A DNA stretch of 64,000 nucleotides from Chloropicon primus (Eukaryota > Chlorophyta > Chloropicophyceae > Chloropicales > Chloropicaceae), in contig CP060770.1 of NCBI GenBank assembly GCA_023205875.1, forward strand, positions 184,501 to 248,500, given 5' to 3'. Position 1 is the first letter of the stretch; every line of letters starts with the position of its first letter. The position numbers and the translations under genes are program-made. Shown piece by piece: positions 1-64,000 of this stretch. The notes under the pieces are model-generated. The model was not told the origin of the DNA, made no database searches, and saw nothing but the letters and a program-made list of their open reading frames with translations.

Positions 1-155
1 AGGAAAGGGAGGGGCGGAAGGTCATCGCAAGCTCCTCCGTCTCGTGACGCTCTTTCGAATGAGCCTGAGCTTGAACGGAGTAACGCTCTGAGCAAGATTC
101 GACGCTCAGAACAGGACGAGAGAGACAGAGGAGAGAGAGAGAGAGGAGGTGATCG
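1..155 (+). promoter_or_regulatory. APH-1 5' leader with motif copy
   Basis: This short leader holds a sense-oriented copy of the recurrent element at 41..75 (CTCTTTCGAATGAGCCTGAG). A CAG-type acceptor candidate near 108-113 suggests a leader intron whose donor lies at or beyond the left edge of the window. A GA-rich run precedes the start codon. Confidence 0.5.
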
Positions 156-1117
156 ATGGGGTGGCTAGCTTGCGCAGGATACACCCTAGTAGGTGCTGGT
201 CCACCTGCTGCCGTCTTCTTCGAGTTCATCGTCTCGTCACCTTTTGTTTTGCTCCTCGCACTCGCCAGTGCTTTCTTTTGGGTCTCTGTCCTTCTGGCCA
301 ACAGCATCGTGTGGAGGATCGTGGCATGGATGGCGGAGGGCAAGGGAGAGGCGTCTCCGTCCTTCGGCTGGCTCACCGTTCTGCCGCTCTTGAGCTTCTT
401 CATCAGCGAAGAAATCCTGAGACCGGTTGTACACAAACAGACGGACAGAGCCACTGCAGCTTTGGAGAGGAGAGCAGTGAGGTAAGGGAGGAAGGGGACG
501 CCAAGGGGTGCGTTGTCGTTGGAAAGGCCATGGCGTTCTCTTTCGAATGAGCCCTCGCTTGGGGGGATTGGCGGCCATGGCGAGGAGTTGTGAAACTAAA
601 CGCGCGGCGTACGACTTTTTCTGCTTTTGTTTTGTTTTGTCTTGTCAGCCTTCGGCACCCCAAGCTGACCAAGCTGGAGAGGCTGAGGATCTGGTTGGGC
701 ATTGGTGCTGGTCAGGGGGTCGCGCACTCGTGCTTGTTCTTCCTCAACACTGTCATAACTTCATACAGGGGCACTTACTATAACAGAGACAGGTGTCCGC
801 AAATGTCGTACTTCTTGGTTGCCGCGATAAGCAGTTGCACTATGTTCATGGTCCTCAGCTTTGCGATGGTCGTCACCAGCGTTGTGTACGAGTCTGGGTC
901 TGGTGTCACGAACCCGGGCACGATCTCGACCGTGAAGGGGGCCAACCTCAAGAAACTGATTCCTTGCGGTCTTCACGGAGCGGCCGTCTTGACCTCGTTC
1001 ATCAGCCTGATGGAAGGAGGCTGCATCGTTTCGAGCATACTTAACGTGTGCTTGGTCGCTCTAACTATTTACCTGTCGTTCAAACTGGTCTCGTGCCTAG
1101 GGAAAGCTGCGCAGTAG
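156..1117 (+). CDS. APH1: APH-1, gamma-secretase subunit
   Basis: Two exons, 156..481 and 649..1117, encode 264 aa, the usual APH-1 length. The intron (482..648, 167 nt) has clean gtaagg and tgtcag ends and splices in phase to give RAVSLRHPKL. The N-terminus (GYTLVGAGPPAAVFF, then SAFFWVSVLL) matches the first two APH-1 membrane segments. About seven hydrophobic segments follow. A GLHGAAVLTSF stretch near residue 220 fits the conserved His of the later helix; the earlier conserved His is not evident. In the known family APH-1 is the scaffold of gamma-secretase, with presenilin, nicastrin and PEN-2, in endomembranes. The coding intron carries a copy of the leader motif (531..562), and another copy lies in the 5' leader (41..75). 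The gene converges on the ClpR gene. Confidence 0.88.
482..648 (+). other. Motif-bearing coding intron of APH-1
   Basis: This 167-nt intron, gtaagg to tgtcag with a T-rich 3' end, carries the motif at 531..562 (TTCTCTTTCGAATGAGCCCT). It is the clearest case of the element inside a coding intron. Its boundaries are fixed by the reading frame and by APH-1 homology on both sides. Its length and motif placement resemble the leader introns of the PTRHD1 and TPR genes. Confidence 0.8.
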
Positions 1118-1343
1118 CCTCGCCTCGTTATCGCCGCTGCCGTAGGAGAAGTAGAACGTAACGGAAGCAGCACTCTAAGAGGAGAGCGAGAGCGAGAGGC
1201 CGGTCTTGCCTCGAAAGTCTGCTGTGTTGTGTGTGTAATGTATGAAAAAGTCAAAAGAAACCCAAACGATGTACCAAAAGTTTTAAAGCTTTCCATAAAG
1301 GTAACAGCTTTTTTCCCCAGCTCCACGAGAAGGCAGGGGCATC

Positions 1344-2249
1344 TCATTTGGTCACCAGGCCCGCCTCCGTGTCCCACTGCTTGGCGGCCTTGATGTCCCC
1401 GATTAAATTCTCGACCCTCTTGCTTTCCACCACAGAGTCAACGATGCCGTACTCGAGGGCATCCGCTGGTTGCATGTAAAGCGGCCTCTGCATGTCGCTA
1501 TTGAGCTTCTCCACCGTGTGACCCGTGTGCTTTGACAGTATGCCAAGCATGTCGTTCTTCTGCGCCTGAACCTCCCTGTTTCTGATGGCAATCTCAATCG
1601 CTTGCCTGCTCCCCGTCGCAGGGATCCTCGGCTGGTGAAGCATGGCGGTCGCGTTCGGAAGCATGGCTCTCTTGCCCTTCTGCCCGGCGGCGAGAATCAT
1701 GCAAGAGTTACCAATGGCCACGCCCACGTTGATGGTCGCGATATCGCTGCTCACGTAGTTCATCGTGTCGTAAATCGCCGTAGCCTCCGTCTCGAAGCCG
1801 ACGACCGAGCCATCGGCCCGGCACGTCCCTGTGCTGTTGATATACATGTAAATATCCTTGCCGGGTTCCTTGTACTGCAAGTACAGGAGCTGGGCGATGA
1901 TGAGCTCGCTCACCGCGCTCACGATGGGCATGCCAAGCCAAATGATCCTGGCGTCAAGAAGGATGGAAGGCAAGTCAGGGGGAGGCGTCTTCGCCCTGTG
2001 CTCGTCGTATCCGCCGCTCGCCGCTGCCGGAGCCCCGCTGTTCATGCTCGTCTCCGACCTCAAGTTCGGCAGCGTCAAGCCAGGAGGCACCCAAAGCTTC
2101 TCAGCTTCCAGCGCAGACCTCGTCACAACTCTGGACACTCTAGCACTCGCTCCTGGCACCCTCCTCCCGAGGTGAACCCGAGGCGAACCTCTTGCCTTGG
2201 CCACCTCCCTCGCACCTCCCTTGCATCTCGTGCCAACCTTCGTCAACAT
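1344..2249 (-). CDS. ClpR-type inactive plastid Clp protease subunit
   Basis: This 301-aa protein has a ClpP fold: IIWLGMPIVSAVSELIIAQL at the start of the domain, then NVGVAIGNSCMILAAGQKGK and AMLHQPRIPATG. Aligned with ClpP, the catalytic Ser column is Gly (in AIGNSC) and the catalytic Asp column is Arg (MQRPLYM). The His of MLHQP is kept. This is the pattern of ClpR, the non-catalytic ring partner in plastid Clp protease; ClpR1/ClpR3 look nearest. The first 70 or so residues are rich in Arg, Ser and Ala and fit a transit peptide. The start follows a leader acceptor at 2281 (ttggtgcag). Two motif copies lie upstream in sense orientation. Confidence 0.85.
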   Translation of the reverse strand: MLTKVGTRCKGGAREVAKARGSPRVHLGRRVPGASARVSRVVTRSALEAEKLWVPPGLTLPNLRSETSMNSGAPAAASGGYDEHRAKTPPPDLPSILLDARIIWLGMPIVSAVSELIIAQLLYLQYKEPGKDIYMYINSTGTCRADGSVVGFETEATAIYDTMNYVSSDIATINVGVAIGNSCMILAAGQKGKRAMLPNATAMLHQPRIPATGSRQAIEIAIRNREVQAQKNDMLGILSKHTGHTVEKLNSDMQRPLYMQPADALEYGIVDSVVESKRVENLIGDIKAAKQWDTEAGLVTK

Positions 2250-2265
2250 CTCTCCCTCCCTCCTC

Positions 2266-2560
2266 GTTTCTCCCCTTTTCCTGCACCAATCCGGTCGACC
2301 AAACGACCAATCGAAAGAACTCGAGACAAGCTTTCGTTCCGTCCAACTCTCTCCCCTCCCCCGTGCCCTTATCCCTCCTCAAACTCCGTCCAAACACTCG
2401 CTCCACACGTCACAATTCGTCGTAATGACAACCCCTTTTTCTCTTTTCTCCCCTTTTCCTGCACCAATCCGGTCGACCAAACGATCAATCGAAAGGGCAA
2501 GAGACAAGCTTTCGTTCTGTTTCACTCCCTTTCCTTTCCCTCGCCCTCCTCCTGCCTCAA
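2266..2560 (-). repeat. Tandem duplicated leader of ClpR with two motif copies
   Basis: Two blocks, about 2266..2345 and 2442..2522, align over about 80 bp with about 90 percent identity. Both share the stretch TGCACCAATCCGGTCGACCA and a motif core (minus-strand copies at 2293..2328 and 2471..2505, about 178 bp apart). On the minus strand each block ends at a ttggtgcag acceptor, so they look like two copies of one leader intron 3' half. Their donor sites are not clear. Confidence 0.7.
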
Positions 2561-2682: not shown

Positions 2683-2839
2683 GTGAGTGATGGGGAGGAG
2701 AAGCACGACGATGGATGGATGGATGAACGGATGGAATCCTCGTGCTCTCCTCTTTCCAATGAGCCCTCGCTTGAGAAAAATGACAAACGGACGAGGATCT
2801 GACAAGACGAATGGTTTTGTTCTTGTGGTTTGATTGCAG
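2683..2839 (+). other. Leader intron 1 of PTRHD1, motif-bearing
   Basis: A 157-nt segment runs from gtgagt to tgattgcag, with a sense motif copy at 2741..2775 (CTCTTTCCAATGAGCCCTCG). It is followed by only 8 nt (TGACACAG, 2840..2847) before the next donor, gtaagg. Confidence 0.65.
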
Positions 2840-2847
2840 TGACACAG

Positions 2848-3016
2848 GTAAGGGCAAGGGGCGATGAGGTCGAGGGGACGCACGAAGAGGGAGAGAGGGA
2901 GGGAGGGATAGATTCTATAGCTCGCGATCTTTCCAAGGAGACCTCGGTCGAGAAAGATGACAAAGGGACGAGGATCTGACGCGACGAATCAATCGTTTTG
3001 CTCTGTTTGATTCCAG
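2848..3016 (+). other. Leader intron 2 of PTRHD1, motif-bearing
   Basis: A 169-nt segment runs from gtaagg to gattccag, with a motif copy at 2921..2952 (GATCTTTCCAAGGAGACCTC). A third leader intron, 3037..3235 (gtaagc to ctgccag, 199 nt), follows a 20-nt exon. It has no clear motif copy. Together these fill the gap between the divergent ClpR and PTRHD1 genes. Confidence 0.65.
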
Positions 3017-3267
3017 CCCGTCCAGTGACAACACAGGTAAGCGCAAGGGACGTTGCAGGCGATGCATACGAGGGAAGGGGCGAGAGGAAGGGCCACCGAT
3101 CCGTCCACTGTCCTCTTTATCTTTCTGCTGGCAGAGCCACTCGATGGGATTGGCCGAGGACTCGTACTGAAGCGCAAGCACACTCTTGGTTGGTCTTCGC
3201 CTGGTTTCGTTGCTTCTCTCTCTCTCTGCTGCCAGTGCTTGGTCAGTTTGCCCCTTTGCTGCGAGGC

Positions 3268-3960
3268 ATGAGATACATCCCAAAGACGTCCAATTGCATC
3301 AAAAGGTATTCAAGCGTGAAGCATTTGGAAGCTTTTTCGATCCATTCCATCGCGAGGCAGGAGCGCGGAGACTCCTCTCCACAGAGGCCAAGGCGAACAC
3401 AGTTCGGGGCGAGGGCGGCAGCGTGGTTTGGTCTTCCAGCGGGTTCAGTTCAGGGGTCGAGGGAATTTTCGGACAAGTTCAGGTTCACGAGGGGAAGGCC
3501 TGCGACGACGATGGCGGCGGCGGGCACCGGAACCAACAGCACGAGCGAGGTCCTCCTGCAGTACGTGGTGCTGAGGAGAGACCTTTGGGACGTGAAGGGC
3601 GACGATGGGAGTGCTACTCCATGGCCCCTTGGCGCGGTTGTCGCTCAGGGCTGCCACGCCTCCACCGCAGCGCTTTGGCTGTCCAAGGATGACGAGGAGA
3701 CCATCGCCTACTGCGGAGAGGACAACCTCGATCACATGCACAAAGCCGTGCTGGAAGTGAAGAGCGAGACCCAACTTCGGAACTTGAGCGAAAAGCTAGG
3801 GCAGTCGGGGGTCAAGCACAAGCTCTGGATCGAGCAGCCAGAGGACGTGGCCACCTGCCTCGCGACGGCGCCGTTGCCAAAATCAAAGGTGTATCCCCTT
3901 TTGAAGAAATTCCAGCTGTGCAAAGCTTCGATCGTCCAGCAGACTAACAAGAAAAAGTGA
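3268..3960 (+). CDS. PTRHD1: PTRHD1-like peptidyl-tRNA hydrolase-domain protein
   Basis: The conserved domain, from about residue 90 to the end, contains LLQYVVLRRDLW, WPLGAVVAQGCHASTAALW and LWIEQPEDVATCLATAP. This is the PTH2-fold pattern of animal and plant PTRHD1. The family is named for similarity to archaeal-type peptidyl-tRNA hydrolase; its exact substrate is less settled. The first ATG in the last exon, 3268, gives 230 aa with an 81-residue basic N-terminal extension. The ATG at 3511 (MAAAGTGT) gives 149 aa, the usual family length. The extension could be an organelle-targeting peptide or 5' UTR. At least three leader introns precede it, two carrying the conserved motif. Confidence 0.85.
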   Translation: MRYIPKTSNCIKRYSSVKHLEAFSIHSIARQERGDSSPQRPRRTQFGARAAAWFGLPAGSVQGSREFSDKFRFTRGRPATTMAAAGTGTNSTSEVLLQYVVLRRDLWDVKGDDGSATPWPLGAVVAQGCHASTAALWLSKDDEETIAYCGEDNLDHMHKAVLEVKSETQLRNLSEKLGQSGVKHKLWIEQPEDVATCLATAPLPKSKVYPLLKKFQLCKASIVQQTNKKK

Positions 3961-5697: not shown

Positions 5698-5727
5698 CTC
5701 GCTTCCCTCTCTCTCCTGCTCTCTCAA

Positions 5728-6440
5728 GTCATCTCGTCATCCGCTTGAAGCAACCTCACACTTCACTCCGGAAGCCAAACGAGGCGTGCGACCAGTCTAC
5801 CGAAAGATAGTGAGGTAATATTTCGTATGATACCCTCCCCTTCTCCCTTACCTGTCTTAATCGCCGTCACTGGTCTTGATAAGGTGGACCACTCCGGTAC
5901 TTTCTCCTTCCCTTTCCGTCCTCCCAGTCGATCCCTCGATGACTCCGGAAGCCAAATGGGTCAATCAAGGTATCGTTGGAAAGATCGCGAGGTCTAGTTT
6001 CGTCCCGCGTCCCCTCTTCTCCTCTTTACCCCTCGTTCGACCGCCAGGCCTCGCCAAAGCGCTCTCCTTCCTCTCCTCTGTCGTCCTCAGAGGTTCCTAT
6101 CCTATTTTCCCCACGCCTTGGTCGAACTCAGGCCAACTCCACAGGAGGGAAGCGGAGGGAAGCGGAGGGAAGAGGGGGACGGTAGAGAGGGAGGGGAGGC
6201 GAACGGAGGACGAGAGACGAAAATAGACCTCGCGAGCTTTCCAACGATACCTCGATTGACCCATTTGGCTTCCGGATCGGTCGAGGGATCGACTGGGAGG
6301 ACGGAAAGGGAAGGAGAAAGTCCCGGAGTGGTCCACCTTGTCAAGACCAGTGACGTCGATTAAGACAGGTAAAGGAGAAGACCAGGGTACCAGACGAAAG
6401 AACATCTCACTACCTTTCCGTAGACTGGTCGCCGGCCCGG
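5728..6440. repeat. Inverted duplicated leaders between glucosyltransferase and QueG
   Basis: The left arm (about 5775..6012) is the reverse complement of the right arm (about 6212..6440), with a roughly 200-bp purine/pyrimidine-rich spacer. Long stretches match, such as GACCCATTTGGCTTCCGGA, GGAAAGGGAAGGAGAAAGT and AGTGGTCCACCTT. Each arm holds a motif copy in the sense of its own gene (5961..5992 minus, 6228..6260 plus) and a more diverged second copy (5783..5815 minus, 6405..6440 plus). The sequence GATTAAGACAGgta in both arms looks like an acceptor directly abutting a donor. Confidence 0.85.
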
Positions 6441-6555
6441 TTTGTGTCTGAATCGCGCAAAGAAGAGACTTTTTTAGAGTAACGCCTGGAAGTGGAGTGT
6501 CACCTCATCTCTTCATGGTCCATCACTTGCAGGTTTTTTGCCGTCTGTTGGGGAG

Positions 6556-8062: not shown

Positions 8063-8398
8063 TCACTTGAGGTCGTCCAGCAGATTGTTCACGGTGGCGT
8101 TGATGATTGCCATCACCACGATCCGTCGTGATGCGAGGGCAATCGCAGGCGATCTCGCCGCCCGAGCGCACTCCCAAGCGTCCTCGTGTCCTATTAGTGA
8201 TGATGCTGATGTTGCTGCTGCTGATGGGGAAAATGGAGTTCCTCCTTGACCAGGGCACCAAACAGGCCAAGCAAGGGCTCTTTGGAAAGATCTCGCCACG
8301 ATCCGTCGTAATGCGAGGACAATCCCATGCGATGTCTCCGTCCAAGCCCACTCCCAAGCGTCCTGTTCAAGTCTCCTGGCGACGCCCCCCATGATCAT
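8063..8398 (-). CDS. Doubtful small gene with internal duplication
   Basis: A minus-strand frame of 111 aa ends in MAIINATVNNLLDDLK and is followed on the minus strand by AATAAAG, so a transcript end here is plausible. The frame contains two related stretches, DAWEWAWTETSHG and DAWECARAARSPA, encoded by 69-bp direct repeats. Between them lie a motif copy (8267..8297, minus) and a T/A-rich acceptor-like ATCACTAATAG. The true structure may therefore be two exons around a motif-bearing intron. An alternative first exon could start at ATG near 8422 (MEDTSFSPVD). No family is recognised. Confidence 0.3.
   Translation of the reverse strand: MIMGGVARRLEQDAWEWAWTETSHGIVLALRRIVARSFQRALAWPVWCPGQGGTPFSPSAAATSASSLIGHEDAWECARAARSPAIALASRRIVVMAIINATVNNLLDDLK
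8116..8364. repeat. 69-bp direct repeat flanking a motif copy
   Basis: 8116..8184 and 8296..8364 are direct copies, about 87 percent identical, 180 bp apart. Both begin CCACGATCCGTCGT and end CACTCCCAAGCGTCCT. A minus-oriented motif copy (8267..8297) lies immediately next to the second copy. The offset equals the usual spacing of paired motif copies in gene leaders. Confidence 0.75.
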
Positions 8399-11779: not shown

Positions 11780-12151
11780 CTACTGCCCTCCCTTCATCTC
11801 CTTGATGGTGGGCCAGACGCCCGACGCCGCCGCGATGGCGAGGAGCACGACAGCTACCTTGACCATGACGCCCTTGGTCCCGGAACCCTGCGATGGGATC
11901 ACAAGCTGCTGCCCCGGAAAGATCATGTCCCCTTCACCAATCGTCTTCGTGTTCGCTTTCCTCAACTTCTCCGTCGTCACGTTATGGCCGGCTGCGATGC
12001 TGGACAGCCACTCGCCCTTCTGCACTTCGTGGTACTTCTTCGCGTCGCATGACACGAGTCTCGAAGATCTCGAGCACCTCGATGCCGATGGAAGGGAAGG
12101 GGGGCTCCTTCCAACGGAGAACCTCCTCGTCGTAATAGTGTTCACGTTCAT
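11780..12151 (-). CDS. LysM-domain membrane protein, probably organelle-targeted
   Basis: A 123-aa protein starting at ATG 12151; the upstream frame has no ATG. The N-terminus (MNVNTITTRRFSVGRS, then Ser/Arg-rich to LVSC) fits a transit peptide. Residues about 40 to 85 form one LysM: YHEVQKGEWLSSIAAGHNVT, then LRKANTKTIGEGDMIFPGQQ and LVIP. A single C-terminal membrane span (VMVKVAVVLLAIAAASGVW) follows. LysM binds GlcNAc-containing glycans such as peptidoglycan or chitin. With MurB in the same window, a plastid peptidoglycan role is tempting but is an inference. The leader (12205..12500) is nearly identical to that of cyclophilin H. Confidence 0.8.
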   Translation of the reverse strand: MNVNTITTRRFSVGRSPPSLPSASRCSRSSRLVSCDAKKYHEVQKGEWLSSIAAGHNVTTEKLRKANTKTIGEGDMIFPGQQLVIPSQGSGTKGVMVKVAVVLLAIAAASGVWPTIKEMKGGQ

Positions 12152-12204
12152 CGCACGAAAATAATCTTCAGCCCACAAGAAAAAACAGCAAGCAGAATCA
12201 CTCG

Positions 12205-12500
12205 TTCAGTCCCTCCACGTTGTCATCCGTTACCCGTAACGCTCGGGCGAGCGCTCTTTCGAAAGATCAAGAGACGAAGACACCATCTAACGAGCGTCAC
12301 CTCCCTCCAGAACACCACCACGTCGTCCAATCTCTCCAAAGCCACCTCATTCCGTCCAAGAGGCAGCCACGAATCACACGTTTCGCGTCTCAACATCCTC
12401 GTCCGTGAAGCGTAGCGCTCGATCGAGGGCTCTTTCGAAAGAGCACGACACGAGTATTCCATCGGCTTCGCTTCTTGTTCCCTCACCACTCGCCCTCGTC
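12205..12500 (-). repeat. 296-bp leader repeat, copy 1 (upstream of LysM gene)
   Basis: This 296-bp segment differs from 15302..15597 at only about four positions (about 98.6 percent identity). Read on the minus strand, it contains two motif copies (12415..12449 and 12241..12276, about 174 bp apart) built on the palindromes GCTCTTTCGAAAGAGC and TCTTTCGAAAGA. It lies just upstream of the LysM coding start. Confidence 0.9.
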
Positions 12501-12979
12501 GTCCAAATCCTCCTCTCCACTTACCGGTCGCTGGAGTCACTCCTCTCTCTTCCTGTGCACCAATGGGAAAGCCCCGAGGAAGTTGGCGAGAGAGGAGCAC
12601 AGCCTCCCTTTGCTCGAGGAATTAGACGACGAGGGCGAGGATTGGTGCGCAAGAGAGATCTATTGAGCGAAGCTACGTCTCGAGAGCTTTCGAACGGTAC
12701 CTTGGTTGACGCGTTTGACGCTCGGAGTGCTCGACGAGGTTCGCATCAGTGTTTGCTGAAGCAGGATTCGATTGGGATGGAGTGACTTTGTGGAGGAAGT
12801 GGAGGGAGATTGGAGCGCTGGGAGGGATAGTGACCAGCATCGAGCGGTAGCGTGACTCACTGTTAGGTTGCTTTCTGAGGATGATGCCCTGAGTGCTCGT
12901 GGAGGTCACGAGGGAGGGAGTTCGAGACCATGATGGAGGAGGTTGGCCTCAGCATGAGGTTGTGAGTGTCACCAACAAC
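12501..12979 (+). promoter_or_regulatory. Leader of CPR5-like gene with motif copy
   Basis: The region holds one sense motif copy at 12677..12710 (GAGCTTTCGAACGGTACCTT) and an acceptor-like GCTGAAGCAG ending near 12762, so a leader intron probably ends there. No other gene is seen. Confidence 0.5.
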
Positions 12980-15301: not shown

Positions 15302-15597
15302 TTCAGTCCCTCCACGTTGTCATCCGTTACCCGTAATGCTCGGGCGAGCGCTCTTTCGAAAGATCAAGAGCCGAAGACACCATCTAACGAGCGTCACCTC
15401 CCTCCAGAACACCACCACGTTGTCCAATCTCTCCAAAGCCACCTCATTCCGTCCAAGAGGCAGCCACGAATCACACGTTTCGCGTCTCAACATCCTCGTC
15501 CGTGAAGCGTAGCGCTCGATCGAGGGCTCTTTCGAAAGATCACGACACGAGTATTCCATCGGCTTCGCTTCTTGTTCCCTCACCACTCGCCCTCGTC
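15302..15597 (-). repeat. 296-bp leader repeat, copy 2 (upstream of cyclophilin H)
   Basis: Nearly identical partner of 12205..12500, exactly the same length, in the same orientation relative to its gene. Motif copies on the minus strand are at 15512..15546 and 15338..15373. The high identity points to a recent duplication or gene conversion limited to the leader; the downstream coding genes are unrelated. Confidence 0.9.
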
Positions 15598-15711
15598 TTC
15601 CATTCTCGCCCCCAAAACTCACCTGGCGGTCGTCTCCTCCGTCCTCTTCAGCTTTCAATTCAAAAAATTGAGCGGCCAGAGGGAGAAGAGAGAGAGAAGC
15701 GAAGGCGAGCG

Positions 15712-15868
15712 GTAAGTGAGGGGTCTTGCGCGAAACGGGGAGGGTCTTTGGTGTGGTGGAGGGGGTCGTTGGATAGATCTTGTCGCGATCTTTCGAAAGA
15801 GCTCTTGCTTGGGACGACTTTCGTCCTGTGGAGGATTTGACGTACTGAAGTAGAGTTCTGTTTTGCAG
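15712..15868 (+). other. Leader intron 1 of TPR gene, motif-bearing
   Basis: 157 nt from gtaagtgagg to ttttgcag, with the motif at 15781..15813 (CGCGATCTTTCGAAAGAGCT). It is followed by a 22-nt exon (15869..15890). Confidence 0.75.
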
Positions 15869-15890
15869 AGTGTGAAGGAAAGAGCGAGAG

Positions 15891-16058
15891 GTAAGTGAGG
15901 TGAAGCGTGGAGTGGAGGGTGTTGTTGTGGTCGTGGATGGTGTCATAGGATAGATCGTGTCGCGATCTTTCGAAAGAGCTCTCGATCGGGACGATTGACG
16001 TCGATTTGAGCCATCTTGAGGAACTGAAAGGAGATCTGTTCGCTTCTGTTTGTCTCAG
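15891..16058 (+). other. Leader intron 2 of TPR gene, motif-bearing
   Basis: 168 nt from gtaagtgagg to tgtctcag, with the motif at 15957..15990. It aligns with the preceding intron at the donor (identical first ten bases), around the motif and at the T-rich end, so the two look like copies of one element. The coding start follows 6 nt after the acceptor. Confidence 0.75.
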
Positions 16059-17384: not shown

Positions 17385-18515
17385 GAATGAACGATTCCCT
17401 TCGACCAATCCACGCTCTCAGGATGCCAAACAACTTGCTCCGTGCTCCCAATGCCTTCCGCCGTCAATGCCCTGCACAAGGAGGTCGAAACGAGAACAAA
17501 ACAAATGGACGTCTCAGTCTTTGCGATACTCAATACGACGCCAACCGTTTCGAGTGACGACTCTTTCGGAAGATCACGACCTAATACGTCGCACTGTTCC
17601 CTCTCTCGACCCCTTACGACCACGACACGACCCCTGGATCGCCTTGAACCCCAGCCTCTCCTCGCTTCCGGCCTAGGCATTGGTCTTCTTCTCAAGCGCA
17701 AGATCCTCAAATGGGGTCCAAATCTTTCGAACGACGGGTCTATCGAAAGAGGAGAAGGCGACTCTTCGTTTCGTAACGCTTTCTGTCGCACTCAAAAGCC
17801 TCGTCGCTCTCCTTACCTTCGAGTTTGCCTCGCTCCTCTTCGCTCCTCTGCGTGGGATCCCAAGGACAAGAAATGGAGACGAAATTTGGGGATCTCAACG
17901 GCGGTCGAGACGGCGGTCGAGACATCAAGCAAAGGAGGTGAGTTTGAGTGGAAATGACGGAGAGGTTGGGTCTCTGGAGGAAAGTGATGAAGTCGAAGAC
18001 GAAATAATATTGTGTCCTCTTTCCAAAGACTCCTCTCTCGAAGGATTTGAAGCCGTTTTGAGGATTTGAGAGACGAAAGATTGCATGCTTGCCATGAAAA
18101 TGTGCTCTGACATCTGGCGGACTCTTGGTGTGGTTTTGACGACAGGCATCGGGTCGAAGCCAGAGTTGGCCCACGCAGTGCGACGCTACGTTCCACGATC
18201 TTTCGTTTGGCTGGTCCCTTGACGCACTTGGCTCTCTGCTGTGTTCGCTTGGCTCGAGGACTTGACTCCTTTGTTTGAAACACTCGGCCGAGTGTGTGAG
18301 AGGGTGGAGGAGCCTGAGGACCCCCAGGCTGGAGGAAAGCTGAAGACGAGTGTGAACCCGCTGCTTCAGGCGAAGTCTAAGGAGGTCGAGGGATTGAGGA
18401 CGCCGGCACACCTTGGTGTTGAGGGGGTGCCAGGCCTTGGTGCAAGAAGCGTCCTTGCTGAGGACTTGTGAGAAGGGGAGTTCGAGGAGGGAAGGTTAAG
18501 GGAAGGAGGCACCCG
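17385..18515. promoter_or_regulatory. Divergent leaders of uL23m and ABCA with three motif copies
   Basis: No coding gene is seen. One motif copy is in minus sense (17550..17582, for uL23m). Two are in plus sense (17719..17750 and 18011..18044, for ABCA). A probable ABCA leader intron runs 17938..18145 (gtgagt to gacgacag, 208 nt) around the last copy. Short overlapping frames here are not supported as genes. Confidence 0.55.
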
Positions 18516-21668: not shown

Positions 21669-21701
<33 letters not shown>

Positions 21702-21811
21702 ACAACTCCAATCCCAGAGAGAGAGAGAAAGAGAGAGTCAAAGAAAGAAAGGCAGAGACAAGAAGAAGGAGAAGAAAAGCAATTCACCATCGTCATTCAT
21801 CCATCCATCCC

Positions 21812-21852
<41 letters not shown>

Positions 21853-30145: not shown

Positions 30146-30706
30146 CACTTCGCTTCGCTTCGCCTCAAGTGTGACGGTTCGATCGAAAGCTCGTGACAAA
30201 AACTTTCGCTCCGTCACCACCTCCGTCACCAGCTCCTCTCCCCCTCGTTGCCGTCGTCGTCGTCGTCGTTTAGGGTCTCCACCGATCGGGTTCGGCTTCG
30301 TTCGATTCCGATGGCCTCGCCTCGTCCTTGGAGCGACGACGTCACCGGTGGAGTGTGTGGGATCAATGGAAAGCTCGTGAGATGCGGTTTCGTTTGGTCC
30401 AACCCTCGAGTGCACCCTTTGCCCGCCTTCGTCCTCACGTCGCGCGCACGCGCCGCGTCTCTTTGCCTCTTTGGCTCAAACCTTCGTCCCCCTCGATTTG
30501 TGATAGTTTTGGCGCGAAGCCCCCAAAAGCAAAATCTCCATTAAATGGTTTAGCGAGACAAACTCTGATGATGATGATGATGATGATGATGTTGATGGAA
30601 TGGTTGGACAAGAGGAGGAGAAGGTGTTGATGGCATCCACATGGCCTCTTGCACTTCTTCGTGCTCTTTCCAAAGAGCCCTCACTTGATGGGGAAAGGGA
30701 TCGTCA
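30146..30706 (-). promoter_or_regulatory. ORC5 leader and promoter: two motif copies, E2F site
   Basis: Minus-sense motif copies lie at 30163..30197 and 30343..30381, about 180 bp apart. Upstream of both lies TTTTGGCGCGAA (30507..30518), a canonical E2F/DP site, then an ATG microsatellite (30566..30592). A third motif copy (30657..30690) faces the other way, with no plus-strand gene downstream, 17 bp beyond the OGDH stop codon. Confidence 0.7.
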
Positions 30707-33700
30707 TCACAAGGCCATGGCGTCCTCCAGGACGGCGTGCTCCTCCTCCTTGTGGAGACAGGCAAAACCGGTGGCAGGGACAGCAGAGGAGCTCCTGCCG
30801 ACGTAAGGCAGGGGCTGGTCCACCGTCATTCCGAGGGCTCGCATGCAGGTCTCCATCCTCGGCATCACGTAGGCGTACGCGCCCATGTTCTTCGGCTCCT
30901 CCTGCAGCCACACGACCTTGGCGTTGGGGTACCTCCTGAGCTCCCTCAGCACCAAGTCGTAGGGGAAAGGACTGATTTGCTCGATTCTCACCATGTGGAT
31001 CTTGTCCTGCAGGCCGACCTCCTGCCTCTTGGCGTCCGCCTTGTAGTACATTTGGCCCGAGCAGAAGAGGACCTTGTCGACGTGAGCCTCCGGGGCGGGC
31101 ACGGGGGCCCGATCCGTGACGGAGGCGTCCATGATCACCCGCTTGAACCGAATCTGAGCCAGCCTATCGTTCTCCGCGTCGTCGTCAAAGTTGTCCAAAG
31201 AATCCTTGCACTTTGGGTGCTTGAGCAGATTCTTGGGCGACATTACGATCAGAGGCTTTCTGAACTCCCTGTGCACCTGCCTCCTCAGGAGGTGGAAGTA
31301 ATTCGCCGGCGTGGAGCAGTTCACGACCTGCCAATTGCACCTCTGAAGGTTCGTCCCCAGGTGAACTCCCTCGAAAAAATCGCTCGTGTCCGGATTCAAT
31401 GCCCCCTCCGGCAACTGAAAGGGATCCTCATCGCACATTTGCAGGAACCTCTCGAGCCTCGCGCTGCTGTGCTCCGCTCCGCCGCCGTCGTAGCCGTGGG
31501 GCAGGAGGACCACGAGGCCTGACTGCCTGAGCCACTTTGCCTCGCCGCTCGACAGGAACTGGTCGAAGATGACCTGGGCCCCGTTCGCAAAGTCCCCGAA
31601 CTGCGCCTCCCACATGATCAAGGAGTTCGGATTCACCAAAGAGTAGCCGAGCTCGAACCCGAGCACTCCGAACTCGGAGAGGGCAGAATTGCAGACCTTG
31701 AACGCCCCCTCCTCCTGGTCCTCAATGACGTGGCTTAAGGGGCAATACCTCTCCCCTGTTTTCTGGTCGTGAACCACGGCGTGCCTGTGAGCGAAAGTTC
31801 CCCTCTCGACATCCTGACCGCTCAGGCGGACGTGGTTCCCCTCGCGAAGCAGAGTCGCAAACGCGAGAGCCTCCGCAGTGCCCCAGTCAATCCCTTCGCC
31901 GGTCTCGATGGCCTTCAACCTGGTGTCGTAAATCTTTTTTATCTTCCTGTGAACATTGAAACCTTCAGGGATCTTGCACATGGCCGTACCAAGCTCTTTA
32001 AGGATCGGCATCTCGACGCCAGTAGTCTTGATCCGACCCAACTGCACGGGACTTTTGAAACCCAGCCAAACGTTCTCCAACCAGTGGAAGTCCTTCGCTT
32101 CGTAGCCCTTGGAAGCCTCCAGAGCAGTGGAGAGCTTGTGGTTGTAACTGTCCTTCATCGTCTTGCACTCCTGCTTCGTAACGGTCCCCTCCTTGAGTAA
32201 CTTGTTGGAGTAGATGAACAACGTGTCAGGAGTCTCACTGATGGTCTTGTACATCAGAGGGTGCGTGAAAGAAGGCTCGTCGCCTTCGTTGTGACCGTGC
32301 TTTCGGTAACAAATCAAGTCCACCACCACATCCGTCTTGAAGGCGGCTCGCCATCTCGCCGCCAACTCCATTACCCTGCAAACAGCCTCGGCGTCGTCAC
32401 CGTTCACGTGAAAGATCGGGGCATCCAGTGCCTTGGCCACGTCAGTGCAGTACGGGGAGGACCTGCTAAACTTGGGGTCCGTGGTGTACGCGACCTGGTT
32501 GTTCACAACGATGTGGACTGTTCCCCCAACAGTGTAGTCTGGCAGGCCCGACATGTCGTACGTCTCGTACACCACTCCCTGGCCGGAGTGCGAGCCATCG
32601 CCGTGCAAGAGAACGCACATGGTCTTCGACCTGTCGTGGTCCTTGGAATAGTGCTGCTTCGCCCTCGTCTTGCCGATAGCCAGGGGTGCCACCGCCTCAA
32701 GGTGGGAGGGGTTGGACAATATGCTGAGCTTGACTGGAAGGCCGGCACTTGTTTTGAAGAAGGGGTTGCTGGTTCCAAGATGGTACTTGACGTCCCCGTA
32801 GCCCGTGTATATCTCCTCACCGTCTTCACCTTTCTGAGGCTTTACCCCCTCGGTGAACTCGTTCAGCATCTGCTCGAGGGGCTTGCCGAGCACGTTTGCC
32901 AAGACGTTGAGCCTCCCCCTGTGCGCCATGGCGAAGGAAACTTCCTCCACGCCGAGTTCCGCGGCGGTGTCGACCATGCTGAGCATTCCGGGAATCAGGG
33001 ACCAGCCCCCATCCAGGCCGAACCTTTTGGTGGCGGGGAACTTCCTGTTCAGGAAATCCTCGAACATCACAGAATGAGCGGTCCTTTCCAAGATCTTCTT
33101 CTTGCCTTCCTTGTCAAACCACGCGCTGGAGGGCTCTTGAATGTTCTTCAGCAGCCAGTTGCGCATTTCTTTCGCAACAACAAGCAAGCGTGAGGCGTTA
33201 GCATCGCGAAAGGCGTGGCACGAAGGAGAGGAGTCTTACCTGGGTTGGAGATGTGGCTGAACTCGTACCCGATGTTGCCACAGTACAGCGCTTTCAGCTC
33301 CTGCACAAGGGACCCGACCGTCTTGTCGACGGACATGCTGACCATCCCGTTGCCTTTGCACGCGCGCGCACGCCGAGGAAAGCAAATTTGTCAGCAGTCC
33401 AAGGTCGAGGGAGGCATCAACGGTGCGACGGACGACTCGACTCACCTTTGATGGGAACGACCAAAGCCTTGATGGGATCTTCCGGATCGAGGCCGTAAAA
33501 CTCAGGCGACAGGCAGCCAAGATCCTCAGGCTTGTGAAGGCCAAGGGGATCCAAGTTCGCCATTCTGTGCCCCAGGTTCTCAAAGCTCTGCATCATCGCC
33601 AGCACTCTTGACATCTTCGCCTCCTGAGGGTTATTGTGTTGCGATCATTTCGTGCGGGGCTCTCGTCAGCAAGTTGCAAGTGGAGCGTGAGGCGCGGCGA

Positions 33701-36952: not shown

Positions 36953-37685
36953 GTGGTGGCCATCCTATATCCAACCTCCTCGTTTGCTGTGGCCCGACAC
37001 GGGGGGTCGATGGTCAGAGAGCACCGCCAGGGAGAACGAGTCGAGTGATGGCGGGCACCGAACGAGAGTTCGCAATCAATCGCTCACGACTCGTGGTTGG
37101 CCTTCGCCCTCAAGTCCTCCTCCCCTGGCGACGGGTATGCAAATCCAATCCACTGTGTGCCCTCGTCCCTCCTCGAGAAAACCACTGTTGCGACGACCTC
37201 CCGATCACTCCGGCCACCAAAACGGTCAAGTAAGGTATCAATGGAAAGATCTCAAGACGATCTACCGTGTTATGAACCTCTCCGTCGTTCCAAACAAACC
37301 ACTCGTCGTCCTGTGAGCAATCAATGATGATCAACCCTGCAAAACTCTGCAACTCTGATGTGGCTCTATTTCAGCCAGAAAATCTAGAAAAAGATTTCCC
37401 ATTAATAATGTTGGTTTCCCCATTAATTATTTTTTCATTGGAAAAATTTTGACAAGCCAGAGAGAAGGGGAAGCGGTGCGGTGCGGTGCGAAACCATCGC
37501 AAGTGAGGGACGATAACGAGCACTGGAGGGGACTAAGGTGGTATCAATCGAAAGGTCTTCTCACGGGCTTTCCATTGATACCTTACTTGACCGATTTCGT
37601 GATCGACAAGTTGGAGGGATCGAAGGAAGAGGAGTGAAAAGTTGAGTTGTTTCCAAGTTTTTGTTTTGTTTTGTTTTTGATTGAG
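36953..37685. promoter_or_regulatory. Divergent leaders of the helical-repeat and ING genes
   Basis: The minus motif copy 37223..37256 and the plus copy 37559..37593 share 25 identical bases (TTTCCATTGATACCTTACTT and on) in inverted orientation. A third, minus-sense core (37540..37563) overlaps the plus copy, making a hairpin GTATCAATCGAAAG / CTTTCCATTGATAC. An AT-rich island (about 37360..37455) between the two leaders is the best candidate for the shared core promoter. Confidence 0.65.
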
Positions 37686-39469: not shown

Positions 39470-40087
39470 CTCTCCCTCCTCCTCCTCAACAACAACTCGA
39501 GGCAAAAACGAGTTCGCGGCCGTTACCGGCAACTCCAGTTGTCAAAACCACTCGAGTGACGACTCTTTCGAAAGCTCTTGAGACGAACTTTCTGATGGAT
39601 CCCTCTTCTCTCACTCTCACAGTCGTTCTCGCCACCACCGTCCTCGTTGAGGTAGCCCAACTCGAATACTTTTTTTTTTCCTTCCCCTTCCGCTCTCCCA
39701 ATCAATGCTTCGACCACTCCAGTTGTCAAACCACCCGAGTGACGGCTCTTTCGAAAGGTCTTGAGACGAACTGTCGTTCAATTGAAACCCCTTCCGCTCT
39801 CTTCGCCCTCGACGTCGTCCAAACCCACGACAAAACAGCCCAGGCGACACTCCACTCGTCTCCTCTGGATCAGTTCGTTTTTGGCGCCGTCGAAGAAACA
39901 GAAACAAAAATCGATCGATCGATCGAGGCGGAGGAGGAGGAGGGGGCGAGTTCGCGACCGATCGCCGCTCGAGGGGTGGGAGAAAAGGGAACGATCACTT
40001 GCGCGATCGAATATACGTCTCGCGATCTTTGGATTCGTGGGTCGGTTGACCCCATTGGCTTGACGCTCGTCGAGGAGGAGGGAAGCC
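39470..40087. promoter_or_regulatory. Divergent leaders of RPC7-like and BIN4 genes with E2F-like site
   Basis: Minus motif copies at 39549..39583 and 39731..39766 share CGAGTGACGACTCTTTCGAAA-type cores and lie 182 bp apart. A diverged plus copy at 40018..40053 precedes BIN4. TTTTTGGCGCC (39878..39888) between them fits the plant E2F consensus TTTSSCGC. A GATC repeat lies at 39911..39926. Confidence 0.6.
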
Positions 40088-42407: not shown

Positions 42408-43067
42408 GCTGATCCAACGCCTCAGCGCCTCACCAGGCCTCCGTTCCTCTCGTACGACAGCTCTTTCGAAAGATCTGGAAACGCTCTTTCTTGTGATCCC
42501 TTCGCCTTCCCCTTTTCTTCTCCCTTTCGTCCGCCTCGCCTCCACTGAAGGGACGGAGACACCTGCAAGAGGGGTCCAAGAATCCCGTTTACCCAAAGGC
42601 CAACCACGTCTAATGGACGCCAAACGAGTCGATCAAGGTATCGTTGGAAAGATCTCGAGACAATCTTTCTCGTGGCCCCTCACTTGCGTCCTGAAACCCT
42701 CCCTTTCGTCCACCTCGCCTCCTTCAAGTCGTGACGTCGAGTCCTGTGGTTTCCTGTCCTTCCGCCGACAGCTGACTGGACACAAACGAACAGACACGAG
42801 GCGCTCGCTCGGCTGAAGAGGTGAGTTTCAACGCGACATGGAGGACGGAGGAGGAAGATGGAGGACCGAAGGAGCACACCGATGGAACCGTTACGTTCCC
42901 CTCTTTCCATCGATGTCTCGCACGAAAAGAGAGGCGGCCTCTTGCGGATGGGACGACTGAAAAGGTTTCGTTTTCTTTTTTTTTTCTGAATGGAATGGAA
43001 TGGGAACGAACCATGGGGCAGAGAGAGAGAGACAGAAGCAGACGAGTTCAATCCACCGCGAGCAACC
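42408..43067. promoter_or_regulatory. Divergent leaders of RRP41 and MMSDH with three motif copies
   Basis: Minus copies at 42446..42479 and 42625..42660 (about 180 bp apart) serve RRP41. A plus copy at 42892..42924 (CTCTTTCCATCGATGTCTCG) precedes MMSDH. No other gene is seen. Confidence 0.6.
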
Positions 43068-48078: not shown

Positions 48079-49338
48079 GTTCCTCCAATATAGAGTACAG
48101 GATTGGATTGTCACAGAGCGCCTCGTCCTTCGTCAAAAGAGTCAGGAGCCGATCCGGTTACGAAGGGATGCAAACCATGCGTTGACGAAGGTCGCGCGCG
48201 CGCGTGTCTTTGATCAAGACTGGGACTCACCACCACCGGGTGCCATGATGATGATGATGATGATGATGATGATGGGACAACTAGACGCAACCTCGAGTCG
48301 CAAAATGACCCGTTTCAATCGAGAGATCACGAAGCGGAGAGAGTATCATCCATGGTAGTCTGACCCTCCCCTCTCCCTCGCACCTTCCTCCTCTGCAAGC
48401 TCTCTCTTTCTCTCTCTCTCACACACACACTCTCGATGAGAGTCCCGCTCCAAGATCCAGTGATCCCGGAGGAAAACACGTCTCCTGGACGCCAAATGGG
48501 TCAAATGACCACTCGTTGGAAAGATCGTGAGACGTATGTTTCGTCTAAGCAATGAACATCCTTTGAATCGTCGTCACTTGGTCTCCAATTGCACCGCAAG
48601 CGTCGCCCCTCTCCCTCGCACCTCCTGGATTCCGACTGTCAAAATTGTCCATGGGATGAAGATTCATTTTGTCATTTTGTGATAGACGTTATATTTATAT
48701 AACGTCCCACACCGAAAAACCCTAATTGGTAACGTCGCGCGCAGAATTCTGCAAAGCGGCGATCAATCGCGATCGCGGGTCGTCACGGAGGGAGGTACGT
48801 TTGCAGGCGAAATACGACCCTTGGACGAGGGGAAAAGGGTGACGAGAAGGTTACCACGGCGTCCGCCATCTCGTGATCTTTCCAACGACCCCTCGTTTGG
48901 ACCGTTTCGTCGACGCGGTGACTGAAAACTTGCGACCTTTGTGCGCTCATCACCAGCGGTCTTGATTCTTTGATTGAATCTTGTGGGTCTTGTGGTGCGA
49001 GGAGAGACGGAGAGGGCGAGGAGCGACGGAGGGGGGAAGCAGGAGAGGTCTTCGAGGGCGAAGGATCTCTTCGCCACCGCCGCCGTCGTCGCATTTCTTT
49101 TTTTTTTTTTCCGTCGAGGAGATCATAGCATTCCCCAGGCTTCTCTTTTTGTCTCCTGCGGAGGTCCCCTCTCGTGAAGGCATCAGCATTCATCATCAGC
49201 TGCTCGATCAGCATCGACGATTGGAGTGACTCGAAAGATCCCGATGGTAAAGCAGTGAGTGATCGATCACCTTTTTCGTGGTGCTGAAGAGAGGAAGAAC
49301 GGGACGGGTTGGCGCCACGCTCTGCCACCACCACCAAG
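48079..49338. promoter_or_regulatory. Divergent leaders of the fusion glycosyltransferase and TRRAP
   Basis: No gene is seen. A minus motif copy lies at 48501..48534 and a plus copy at 48869..48903, each in sense with its gene. Between them are a perfect inverted repeat GACGTTATAT-tt-ATATAACGTC (48685..48706) and a telo-box AAACCCTAA (48717..48725), in an AT-rich island that is the likely shared promoter. An ATG microsatellite lies at 48245..48277 and a CT tract at 48401..48419. Confidence 0.65.
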
Positions 49339-62027: not shown

Positions 62028-62116
62028 TAAATAAATATAAATAGTTCTTGTGTGAATATGGTAATATAGTACAACACAATTTGTTCAAAACATGCAGTTG
62101 CTGTTGCTTGATGCAA

Positions 62117-63648
62117 TCAATCGATCCCATGGATTCTTCCAAGGGCCAACTCGTTGGACCAAGGGGTGTCCTCGTTGGTGTAGGCTTCCGGAGGGAATTG
62201 GAAAGGGAGGGGAACGTCCATATCGTCAGCAACCTTGACCGCTACGCTCAGTTCGTAGTGTCTGATACAGAGCTGCGACCCCTGCTTCTGAAGGCACCCC
62301 CAGGCCGCCTTGGAGAGGTTGTGGCTGCCGACGACAACCCACGCCAGCTCTGAACCGGAGTAACGCATGTAGGTCTTGATGTGCGGCGCTGCCCGGACAG
62401 AGCCCCACTTCCTGTAGTGGGGGAGAAGAAAGTCTTTGCAAACATTTTTCTGGGCCCCGGGGATGCTTGTACCCGCACTCAGGCCTTCCAAACTTGTCGC
62501 TACCTCTCTGTACGTGGGCCAGACCAAGTGCAAGTCTCGCTCCAGGTTCGCAGGAGGGCCCAAATGCCCACTTCCAGAGAGCCTTCCTGCTGACAGTGAC
62601 GTTACGAACTCCTCTTGCACCCACTTCCTATCCAAGCTGCCTACTGAAGAGTACTGGCAGATCAAAGGCGAGCCAGAAAAACAATACTTGAAGGTCTCCT
62701 GGCTCAAAACCCTCCTCAGTTTCATGTGGCCGTAGAGGTTGATGGTGTTCGCTTTATGGTAACCGGGAACAGACGCGATTAAGCACAACGCCTTTGCCGG
62801 GGAGAAGTCCACCTTCTTCACGTTTTCCAAGAACTTCATGCAGGTGCGAGGCAGGTTCAAGTGGTTCAGGTACTGGATGAACTCGATCTCAAAGCTGCAA
62901 CTCGATCTCTCCTTCTTCAGGAAAAAGTCTTGAAACCAAATTCCTTGCGTCTTGTAGCAACAGTCTTTCTCAATGAGGTTCGCCGTTGTGATGATGAGCC
63001 TCATCTTGTCTCGGAAAAAAAGTATGAAGAACTGCAAGGAAGAGAGAGAGAGAGAGAGAGAGAGAAAGTCAGTCGCTTTTCATGGAACAACTTTTTCAAT
63101 GGTCAACTTACTTTGCTGTGATGGGTGCCGTAAGGGATGGGCAAGGGCGGCGCGTGCAAAACAAGCCTGCTTCTGTCTTGGTCCATCCATCCCCTCTCCT
63201 TCACGAGTCTTTCCTTGATGCACTTGCTCTGCGCATTCCTCTCGTCATAAGCCACGATAAGCTCTGGAGCACGCACCACGTCTGGAAAGTTCTCTATGAG
63301 GAAATCCGCGTCAAGCAAGTAATTGGAGACTAACGCGGCTTTCACTTCTCCCCGGCACAAGTCTTGCAACCGTTTTCCCTTCGGGTGGACACCGCCCACG
63401 TGCATGATTTCAAATGCCTTTGGCCGACACTCCACAGCGTGAACCTTCTTCGCTTCCTTGACCAGGTCCTGCTTCTCGATGAAGCGTGTGAAGTCTGTCA
63501 CCCCCTTTCTTCTCAGCCACTCTTTGAGCTCCTTGATGCTGTACTCATCGAATTGGGGCGAGGACCTCGACCCTGACGAGGATCCAGCGCCACTGGCATC
63601 ACCCGACCCTCTCTTCCTCTTCCTCTCCCTCTCCCTCTCCCCGTCCAT
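62117..63648 (-). CDS. TDP1: Tyrosyl-DNA phosphodiesterase 1
   Basis: Exons 63648..63112 and 63031..62117, with an 80-nt intron (gtaagt to ccttgcag, CT-rich), encode 483 aa. The splice joins the first HKD motif: PYGTHHSK|FFILFF. The second is HIKTYMRYSGSELAWVVVGS followed by HNLSKAAWG. Both catalytic His-Lys pairs are present. Other family segments are IGSVPGYH-like LIASVPGYH, IYEFIQYL-like EFIQYLNHL and the final NEDTPWSNE. TDP1 removes topoisomerase I peptides from DNA 3' ends. The N-terminus is charged (MDGERERERKRKRG). The frame is open further upstream through a motif copy (63891..63930), but without an ATG, so the start is set at 63648. Confidence 0.92.
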
Positions 63649-64000
63649 CCTTCCTGCCAAGCTCTCGTTCTCGTCCAAACTAAAACCAGGAGGTGGCACC
63701 TTTGGGTCACCCGAAAGGGTCCGAATGAGGACACAACCAAGCGATCCGCATACCAAGCTTCCCAATCTCTCCTTCCCTTCACCGCTCCCTCGTCCTCCAC
63801 GCGGCAACAGCTGCGAGCCCGAGTCTGGGCTCTCCCTTCCCGTCTTCCCAAGCCCTTCACCCAGCCTCAACTCCTTCCTTGGAGAAGAAAATCGGTCATG
63901 CGACCACTCAAACGAAAGAACACAAGACGACAATTCGCTCTATACCTCGTTTGCTCCCTCCCTCTCTCCCCCTCGCCGCTAATCGTCCCCTCCCTTCAAA
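63649..64000 (-). promoter_or_regulatory. TDP1 leader with motif copy
   Basis: One minus-sense, diverged motif copy lies at 63891..63930 (core GTTCTTTCGTTTGAGTGGTC). The rest is pyrimidine-rich. The window ends within the leader, so a second copy and the promoter may lie beyond the edge. Confidence 0.5.

What the first reader, a model, noticed from the sequence alone, without database searches (positions are those of the whole stretch)
41..63930. A conserved ~33-bp element in the leaders of most genes, oriented with the gene
I count about 30 copies in 64 kb of a motif with core GATCTTTCSAAMGA (often the perfect palindrome TCTTTCGAAAGA), then roughly GCCCTCGMTTGAS. Copies precede APH1, ClpR, PTRHD1, glucosyltransferase, QueG, LysM, CPR5-like, PPIH, TPR, uL23m, ABCA, ORC5, helical-repeat, ING, RPC7-like, BIN4, RRP41, MMSDH, GT fusion, TRRAP and TDP1. 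Almost every copy reads in the sense of the gene it precedes, even at divergent promoters. Where splice sites are readable it sits mid-intron. The flanks diverge while the motif stays, so it is more than shared ancestry: a splicing, transcription or RNA-structure element is likely.
Basis: partly seen in the sequence, partly recalled or inferred. Interest (0 to 1): 0.9.

Follow-up and report, generated by a model that had tools for sequence, protein, structure and literature searches.

The report
Nucleosome-spaced DNA element after promoters
In a tiny marine green alga, many genes carry a long conserved DNA word just after their start, pointing the way the gene is read and repeated at nucleosome-like steps of about 180 bases, which suggests that the DNA itself lays out the first nucleosomes of these genes.

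Summary
The motif is real: 36 profile copies in the window; 255 perfect palindromes genome-wide against 1 for the reversed pattern. The genome is Chloropicon primus RCC138 by size. The conserved part is about 68 bp, 46.6 bits. Of 95 copies, 82 precede a same-strand coding segment. Same-strand neighbours lie mostly 176-188 bp apart, mode 177; divergent neighbours mostly 242-303. About a third have a splice donor near -88; no RNA structure is conserved. New here: each copy lies in its own block of about 165 bp whose A/T and G/C steps alternate every 10.5-11 bp in fixed register. The signal fades after the block in single copies, continues in pairs, and recurs in 40 further promoters. I read each copy as a DNA-encoded, gene-oriented, nucleosome-sized module (+1, often +2). 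Divergent sites are about 38 times denser on the four smallest contigs than on C1-C6, unexplained.

The parts
   Evidence: profile
514..581 (+). motif copy (core 544), same side; donor upstream
2275..2342 (-). second copy (core 2312), leader of Clp protease gene 1344-2249
2453..2520 (-). first copy (core 2490), 178 bp from the second
2726..2793 (+). first copy (core 2756), leader of PTH2-domain gene 2998-3960; donor upstream
2903..2970 (+). second copy (core 2933), 177 bp on; an apparent 8-nt exon lies between the two apparent introns
5764..5831 (-). second copy (core 5801), leader of glycosyltransferase 4040-5194
5941..6008 (-). first copy (core 5978)
6211..6278 (+). first copy (core 6241), leader of QueG 6538-7995; 263 bp from 5978
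6388..6455 (+). second copy (core 6418)
8247..8314 (-). copy (core 8284) pointing into the 3' end of QueG; the next modelled + segment on its other side begins only at 9514
12223..12290 (-). second copy (core 12260), leader of - gene near 11783-12154
12399..12466 (-). first copy (core 12436)
12661..12728 (+). copy (core 12691), leader of + gene 12893-14332
15320..15387 (-). second copy (core 15357); 15302-15602 is 98% identical to 12205-12505
15496..15563 (-). first copy (core 15533)
15764..15831 (+). first copy (core 15794) in an apparent leader intron, 261 bp from 15533
15941..16008 (+). second copy (core 15971) in a second apparent leader intron after a 22-nt exon
17530..17597 (-). second copy (core 17567)
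17707..17774 (-). first copy (core 17744), leader of - gene near 17070-17330
17993..18060 (+). first copy (core 18023), leader of ABC transporter 18468-21521
18174..18241 (+). second copy (core 18204)
30147..30214 (-). second copy (core 30184), leader of ORC5 28413-29840
30331..30398 (-). first copy (core 30368)
30640..30707 (+). copy (core 30670) pointing into the 3' end of - gene 30707-33187; read as the far arm of the ORC5 promoter
37206..37273 (-). copy (core 37243), leader of - gene 34697-36952
37542..37609 (+). copy (core 37572), leader of ING gene 37647-38543, no strict donor found
39532..39599 (-). second copy (core 39569), no strict donor found, shortly before an ATG
39715..39782 (-). 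first copy (core 39752)
40001..40068 (+). copy (core 40031), leader of + gene near 40544-41377
42430..42497 (-). second copy (core 42467), leader of RNase_PH gene, no strict donor found
42609..42676 (-). first copy (core 42646)
42877..42944 (+). copy (core 42907), leader of aldehyde dehydrogenase 43165-44922
48481..48548 (-). copy (core 48518), leader of GT fusion 44992-48114
63876..63943 (-). copy (core 63913), leader of TDP1 gene 62117-63933

Best explanation
Each motif copy is the conserved centre of a DNA-encoded, nucleosome-sized module (about 165 bp, repeated mostly every 176-188 bp) lying downstream of the transcription start and read in the direction of transcription. One module marks the +1 nucleosome, a second the +2, and at bidirectional promoters both arms carry them around a nucleosome-poor core. 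The alternating A/T and G/C steps fix how the DNA wraps; the 68-bp oriented sequence sits just 3' of the presumed dyad (about 14-24 bp, reckoned from the phase) and probably sets translational position and polarity, through the histone surface alone or with a factor that reads nucleosomal DNA. Where the leader is spliced, the donor falls near the upstream edge of the block, so the intron is about one module. Shown: motif, orientation, spacing, phase on both sides of the motif, block edges. Inferred: that a nucleosome occupies the block, where transcription starts, and any effect on transcription.
For: Same-strand neighbours within 1200 bp: 21 of 28 at 176-188 bp and 26 of 28 at 161-188; no convergent neighbour. 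Genome-wide strict core pairs, rows on both strands: 4 at 127-157 bp, 174 at 157-187, 32 at 188-218, reversed control 0 each. Held-out promoters: 22 of 38 same-strand distances at 176-179 and 32 of 38 at 174-188. Pairs with flank identity below 0.45: 33 of 38 still at 174-188. Divergent sites: 4 at 211-241, 54 at 242-272, 43 at 273-303, control 0. The A/T-minus-G/C step profile peaks at 10.5 bp in both flanks of all 86 copies and of the 59 without a donor; in held-out copies at 11 bp, z 11.0 upstream (n=114) and 4.0 downstream (n=83). The phase agrees from -105 to about -35 and from +15 to +65. In single and last copies the signal is near background at +75; in first-of-two it goes on with a shifted phase. 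Register is kept though flank identity is close to composition. Position 0 is C .38 or G .60, position 2 A .64 or T .35, as shape readout would allow. 0 conserved RNA pairs.
Against: No nucleosome, start-site or RNA data. The periodicity lies in the shared consensus: after subtracting it the 10-11-bp contrast is 0.005 +- 0.011 (raw 0.074 +- 0.014; other non-coding -0.029 +- 0.015). Upstream the excess is broad, with z 4 to 10 also at 12-16 bp. In the 27 copies with a donor the downstream peak was at 14 bp, not 10.5. Inside the motif the strongest period is 6.5 bp and the 10.3-bp phase departs between about -25 and +5. In last copies a slight excess remains at +105 to +135. My acceptor scan was not above random (13 of 95 against 11.5%), so the downstream intron edge rests on pyrimidine tracts at +60 to +80 and on reading by eye. 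46.6 bits is more than any histone preference needs. 52 of 98 gene starts lack the element. No CG rhythm or clear 177-bp autocorrelation peak in the sample. Array partners are alike (flank 0.423 against 0.352), so some spacing comes from tandem copying.
Confidence: 0.5

Rival explanations
1. The motif is the binding site of a large sequence-specific factor (many-fingered or multi-subunit) that acts as a barrier beside or on the first nucleosomes and phases them; the histones only follow.
For: 46.6 bits over 68 bp, orientation, 176-188-bp spacing; the 10.3-bp phase departs inside the motif, as a protein-read site might show.
Against: The same rotational phase is found on both sides of the motif and the block is about 165 bp long with the motif inside it, so the site does not look like a linker.
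Confidence: 0.23
2. An enhancement element of the plant intron-mediated-enhancement kind: a transcribed, promoter-proximal DNA sequence that raises transcription, whether or not it is spliced.
For: Downstream of the promoter, sense, with and without a donor, as reported for TTNGATYTG in Arabidopsis (PMC6760150, passages).
Against: The Arabidopsis sequence is in only 3 of 201 units (about 0.8 expected from the sample); that model does not predict fixed 177-bp spacing. It could hold together with the best explanation.
Confidence: 0.12
3. Degenerate copies of an old nucleosome-length repeat or introner that settled near promoters, multiplied by local duplication and conversion, with little present function.
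For: About 165-bp unit, donors near its upstream edge in a third of copies; tandem runs; a 301-bp stretch present three times on C17 at 91-100%; array partners alike; no periodicity beyond the consensus.
Against: Core identity 0.502 beside near-random flanks; spacing kept in diverged pairs; only 5 matches genome-wide to a 301-bp array, the query and two short pieces included; position tied to gene starts. Terminal repeats and target duplications were not tested.
Confidence: 0.12
4. A splicing or RNA-structure element acting in the pre-mRNA.
For: Sense orientation; donors peaking near -88 in 36 of 95 and 36 of 114 copies.
Against: 0 conserved pairs, no Rfam match on a copy, most copies without a strict donor, acceptor scan at random level.
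Confidence: 0.03

Closest known systems
DNA-encoded rotational positioning of the +1 nucleosome in animal promoters (Dreos et al. 2016, PMC5055345; abstract and one results section read)
   Same: 10-11-bp dinucleotide periodicity strongest in the +1 region just downstream of the start, matched there by in-vivo nucleosomes
   Different: There a diffuse dinucleotide signal; here a 68-bp, 46.6-bit oriented sequence sits in each nucleosome-sized unit and the unit is often repeated
Intron-mediated enhancement motif TTNGATYTG (PMC6760150, passages)
   Same: transcribed, promoter-proximal, works from intron or exon without splicing
   Different: 9-bp unrelated sequence; no nucleosome-length spacing in the passages that I saw
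Introners (PMC9860276, passages)
   Same: tied to nucleosome linkers; the apparent introns here are about one unit long
   Different: introners are families of highly similar introns; these copies are diverged, mostly without a strict donor and near gene starts. 'Chloropicon' does not occur in that main text
Alphoid or CEN180 satellites, about 171-178-bp monomers (recalled, from no call)
   Same: nucleosome-length repeat unit, in some satellites with a conserved box
   Different: here mostly one or two units per promoter arm, genome-wide, oriented with genes

Membership tests
DNA-encoded +1 nucleosome | 10-11-bp A/T-step periodicity in register downstream of the promoter | tested here: met
   carried by the shared consensus
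DNA-encoded +1 nucleosome | a positioned nucleosome in vivo | not testable with these tools
DNA-encoded +1 nucleosome | fixed distance from mapped start sites | not testable with these tools
   only gaps between divergent copies could be measured
Intron-mediated enhancement motif | sequence TTNGATYTG | tested here: not met
   3 of 201 units
Intron-mediated enhancement motif | transcribed, promoter-proximal, in introns or exons | tested here: inconclusive
   position before coding segments and strict donors support it, but transcription was not seen
Intron-mediated enhancement motif | raises mRNA level | not testable with these tools
   needs reporters
Introner | many highly similar copies genome-wide | tested here: not met
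   upstream flank identity 0.346 against 0.315 expected; 5 matches to one 301-bp array
Introner | each copy is a spliced intron | tested here: not met
   strict donor in 36 of 95 and 36 of 114 (an underestimate, since other donors such as GTACGT at 48882 are missed)
Introner | terminal repeats or target-site duplications | not tested
   empty sites not available
Structured RNA element | conserved base pairs or Rfam match | tested here: not met

The most novel reading that the evidence does not exclude
A nucleosome-by-nucleosome promoter code: a dedicated reader recognises a 68-bp oriented sequence near the dyad of the +1 and +2 nucleosomes, so that the DNA of a eukaryote spells out, per nucleosome and per direction, where transcription-linked chromatin begins; the code is concentrated on the small chromosomes.
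Probability: 0.3. Interest if true: 0.95.

Novelty: new variant of a known kind. Interest (0 to 1): 0.85.

Why it matters
How far DNA sequence, rather than remodellers, places the first nucleosomes of genes is an old question. A genome in which about half of the sampled gene starts (46 of 98) carry a strong, oriented, nucleosome-length sequence module would let it be tested directly: reconstitute, map, delete. It also suggests a link between nucleosome length and leader intron length, and a chromosome-size gradient that any account of its spread must explain.

Tried and rejected
RNA structure: RNAalifold on 82 copies gave 0 pairs; 41 Rfam matches at E up to 1 lie on four low-complexity stretches and none overlaps a copy. 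CG-methylation linkers: no CG rhythm near copies and no clear 177-bp peak in the autocorrelation of the sample; one PF00145 gene was found and not followed. GATC as a methylation site (recalled idea): not constant in the copies. Pattern scan of viral contigs for relatives: 0. Residual periodicity after removing the consensus: not significant. A jitter null for periodicity was too lenient, since any position-locked composition beats it; whole spectra were used instead. An acceptor scan found 13 of 95 against 11.5% at random. Dropped before counts: three exact tandem copies in L018 and two cores of the 98% duplicated pair in the periodicity, identity and within-array tests (searches dropped only the L018 ones); from the alignment of 82, also copies with E above 1e-4; held-out copies under 15 bits in those tests and in the donor count (of 119 at 10 bits or more, 114 had room upstream). 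The 40 held-out loci were picked from 54 sites of one strict pattern, so their cores and divergent gaps are not independent; their same-strand spacing and flank periodicity are. Held-out exceptions: distances of 159, 192, 193, 199, 234 and 241, a divergent 74 and 204, and one convergent pair at 97 bp. L001-L004 were fetched by the perfect palindrome and are biased to it. The strict genome-wide pattern undercounts.
Full report
What is there. The core motif matches 41 times in the window (both strands, up to 2 mismatches; palindromic copies count twice) against 2.55 expected. A profile built from window copies and iterated finds 36 copies in the window and 95 at E<1e-2 in 276 kb: the window, 20 stretches of 10 kb (one per contig) and four 3-kb loci fetched by the palindrome. 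The perfect palindrome occurs 255 times in the genome, its reversed control once. The genome has 17,584,162 bases in 20 contigs, the longest 1,855,637 and the shortest 417,210; these numbers equal those printed for Chloropicon primus RCC138 (PMC12301720, passages).

The element. In 196 copies the conserved part runs from about -30 to +37 around the core and holds 46.6 bits; the consensus reads roughly Ac.g..gGAAaC.TCgTCTCgtGATCTTTCGAA.GAgCCCTCGCTCGAa.GgtTTGGCG. Pairwise identity is 0.502 there against 0.251 expected from composition, but 0.346 against 0.315 in the upstream flank and 0.276 against 0.265 downstream. The motif is kept while the flanks are nearly scrambled. Two core positions accept both bases of a strength class: position 0 is C .38 or G .60, position 2 is A .64 or T .35.

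Where it sits. A codon-usage model trained on long ORFs marked coding segments. Of 95 copies, 82 are followed by a same-strand segment, 7 by an opposite one, 4 by none within 1.5 kb and 2 lie at an edge; random non-coding points gave 2601 same and 1227 opposite of 5000; one copy lies more than 150 bp inside a modelled segment, near its 5' end. Five of the 7 exceptions (window 8284 and 30670, L020 5169, L024 964 and 1131) lie behind the 3' end of a neighbouring gene and point into it. On the other side of four of these a divergent segment begins near; for 8284 the next modelled one begins 1.2 kb away. I read them as the antisense arm of a bidirectional promoter, an inference. The other two are in L013. 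Overall 46 of 98 putative gene starts have a sense copy, 17 of 23 in the window.

Spacing. Same-strand neighbours within 1200 bp: 21 of 28 at 176-188 bp, mode 177, and five at 161-167, four of them in the tandem run of L018; divergent neighbours: 12 of 17 at 252-279; convergent: none. Genome-wide, strict core pairs: 4 at 127-157 bp, 174 at 157-187, 32 at 188-218; divergent sites 4 at 211-241, 54 at 242-272, 43 at 273-303; reversed controls 0. Palindromic pairs count on both strands in the same-strand numbers, and these include tandem runs. In 40 promoters chosen from the 242-272 class, 38 same-strand distances were seen, 22 at 176-179 and 32 at 174-188. Array partners are somewhat alike (flank 0.423 against 0.352 between arrays, n=56), so tandem copying or conversion happens, but of 38 pairs with flank identity under 0.45, 33 still lie at 174-188 bp.

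Splicing. A strict donor (GGTRAG) lies upstream in 36 of 95 copies, peaking near -88, against 5.2% of random points, and in 36 of 114 held-out copies against 1 of 114 for the antisense control. A pyrimidine- and T-rich peak lies at +60 to +80, but my acceptor scan found 13 of 95 against 11.5% at random. Some arrays look by eye like two leader introns separated by 8 or 22 nt. Other copies lack a strict donor and lie shortly before an ATG. RNA folding of 82 copies gave no pairs. I take splicing for a companion, not the general role.

Nucleosome signal. The profile of A/T steps minus G/C steps, aligned on the core, has its spectral peak at 10.5 bp upstream (-145 to -30) and downstream (+38 to +150) in all 86 copies and in the 59 without a donor; in the 27 with a donor it peaks at 11 upstream and at 14 downstream. 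In held-out copies both peaks are at 11 bp, z 11.0 upstream (n=114) and 4.0 downstream (n=83); upstream the excess is broad, z 4 to 10 also at 12-16 bp. The 10.3-bp phase agrees from -105 to about -35 and from +15 to +65, and departs inside the motif, whose own strongest period is 6.5 bp. In the 92 single and 148 last copies the signal is near background at +75, with a slight excess at +105 to +135 in last copies; in the 56 first-of-two it continues, with a shifted phase. Each copy thus carries its own block of about 165 bp with the motif just 3' of its middle. Length, period and repeat distance fit a nucleosome. Against this, the periodicity resides in the shared consensus, and the residual autocorrelation was not significant; descent from one ancestral sequence and present selection are not fully separated, though keeping register in near-random flanks favours selection.

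Mechanism. I propose a DNA-encoded module for the +1 and often +2 nucleosome, polar with respect to transcription. Assigning +1 rests on donors near -88, the pyrimidine-rich stretch upstream of about -120 and the divergent gap, which leave starts roughly 100-130 bp before the first core; no start was mapped. That strong positioning sequences can be polar barriers to polymerase is recalled, from no call. The high information content points to a specific reader as well.

Chromosome gradient. Of 97 divergent sites, 6 lie on C1-C6 (8.86 Mb), 45 on C7-C16 (6.92 Mb) and 46 on C17-C20 (1.81 Mb; four of these assigned, see the steps told); Spearman -0.87 with contig length. A few sites are copies of one another by their listed letters, such as C19:302149 and C19:315142. 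Gene starts show the same trend in the sample: 5 of 24, 17 of 35, 24 of 39. Higher recombination on small chromosomes could favour spread by conversion or more efficient selection; untested.

Known work. Animal promoters have 10-bp periodicity in the +1 region (PMC5055345, abstract and one section). Plant intron-mediated enhancement works from transcribed DNA without splicing (PMC6760150, passages). Introners are biased to linkers (PMC9860276, passages). In the main texts of the two Chloropicon genome papers the word UTR does not occur, and motif occurs 0 times and once (PMC12301720; PMC6731263, where it is a protein motif). Searches joining Chloropicon with introner (2 papers), intron (0), promoter motif (20 of 2,610 listed) and nucleosome (3 of 4 listed) showed no title or abstract start that describes such an element; only open-licence papers are held.

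Noticed in passing
G000, all contigs: Divergent motif sites are about 38 times denser on C17-C20 than on C1-C6; the first listed perfect palindrome on C1 lies at 1,061,550.
   Followed up: partly
window 12205-12505, 15302-15602; C17:151603-151902: A 301-bp two-copy array is present three times on C17 (98% and 91% to the query) in different places, as if copied by conversion or duplication.
   Followed up: partly
window 5788-6024 and 6196-6432: The two arms of one promoter are an inverted repeat of 89% identity; the promoter at C17:159404-159679 shares its 80 listed letters on one strand.
   Followed up: no
L018 7046-7756; L021 4782-5413; C16:318341-319369; C13:443021-443564: Tandem runs of units carrying the motif (steps about 167, 95, 170 and 177 bp), like short satellites; the L021 units score weakly.
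   Followed up: no
window 2810-2860, 15867-15890; L013, L022, L023: Apparent tandem leader introns separated by exons of only 8 or 22 nt.
   Followed up: no
G000, 39 places: A subfamily CTTTCCAAWGARCCCTCACTTG occurs 39 times, none on C1-C6; two members read here (window 30670, L024 964) have GATG-rich flanks and point into the 3' end of a gene, while the four in L018 precede a gene.
   Followed up: partly
window 21669-21847 and 34443-34629: Inverted copies (86%) of a GA/CT-rich dispersed repeat, which draw nearly all of the weak Rfam matches.
   Followed up: no
window 24975-25442: Tandem repeat of 12- and 18-bp units inside ORF 24684-26786.
   Followed up: no
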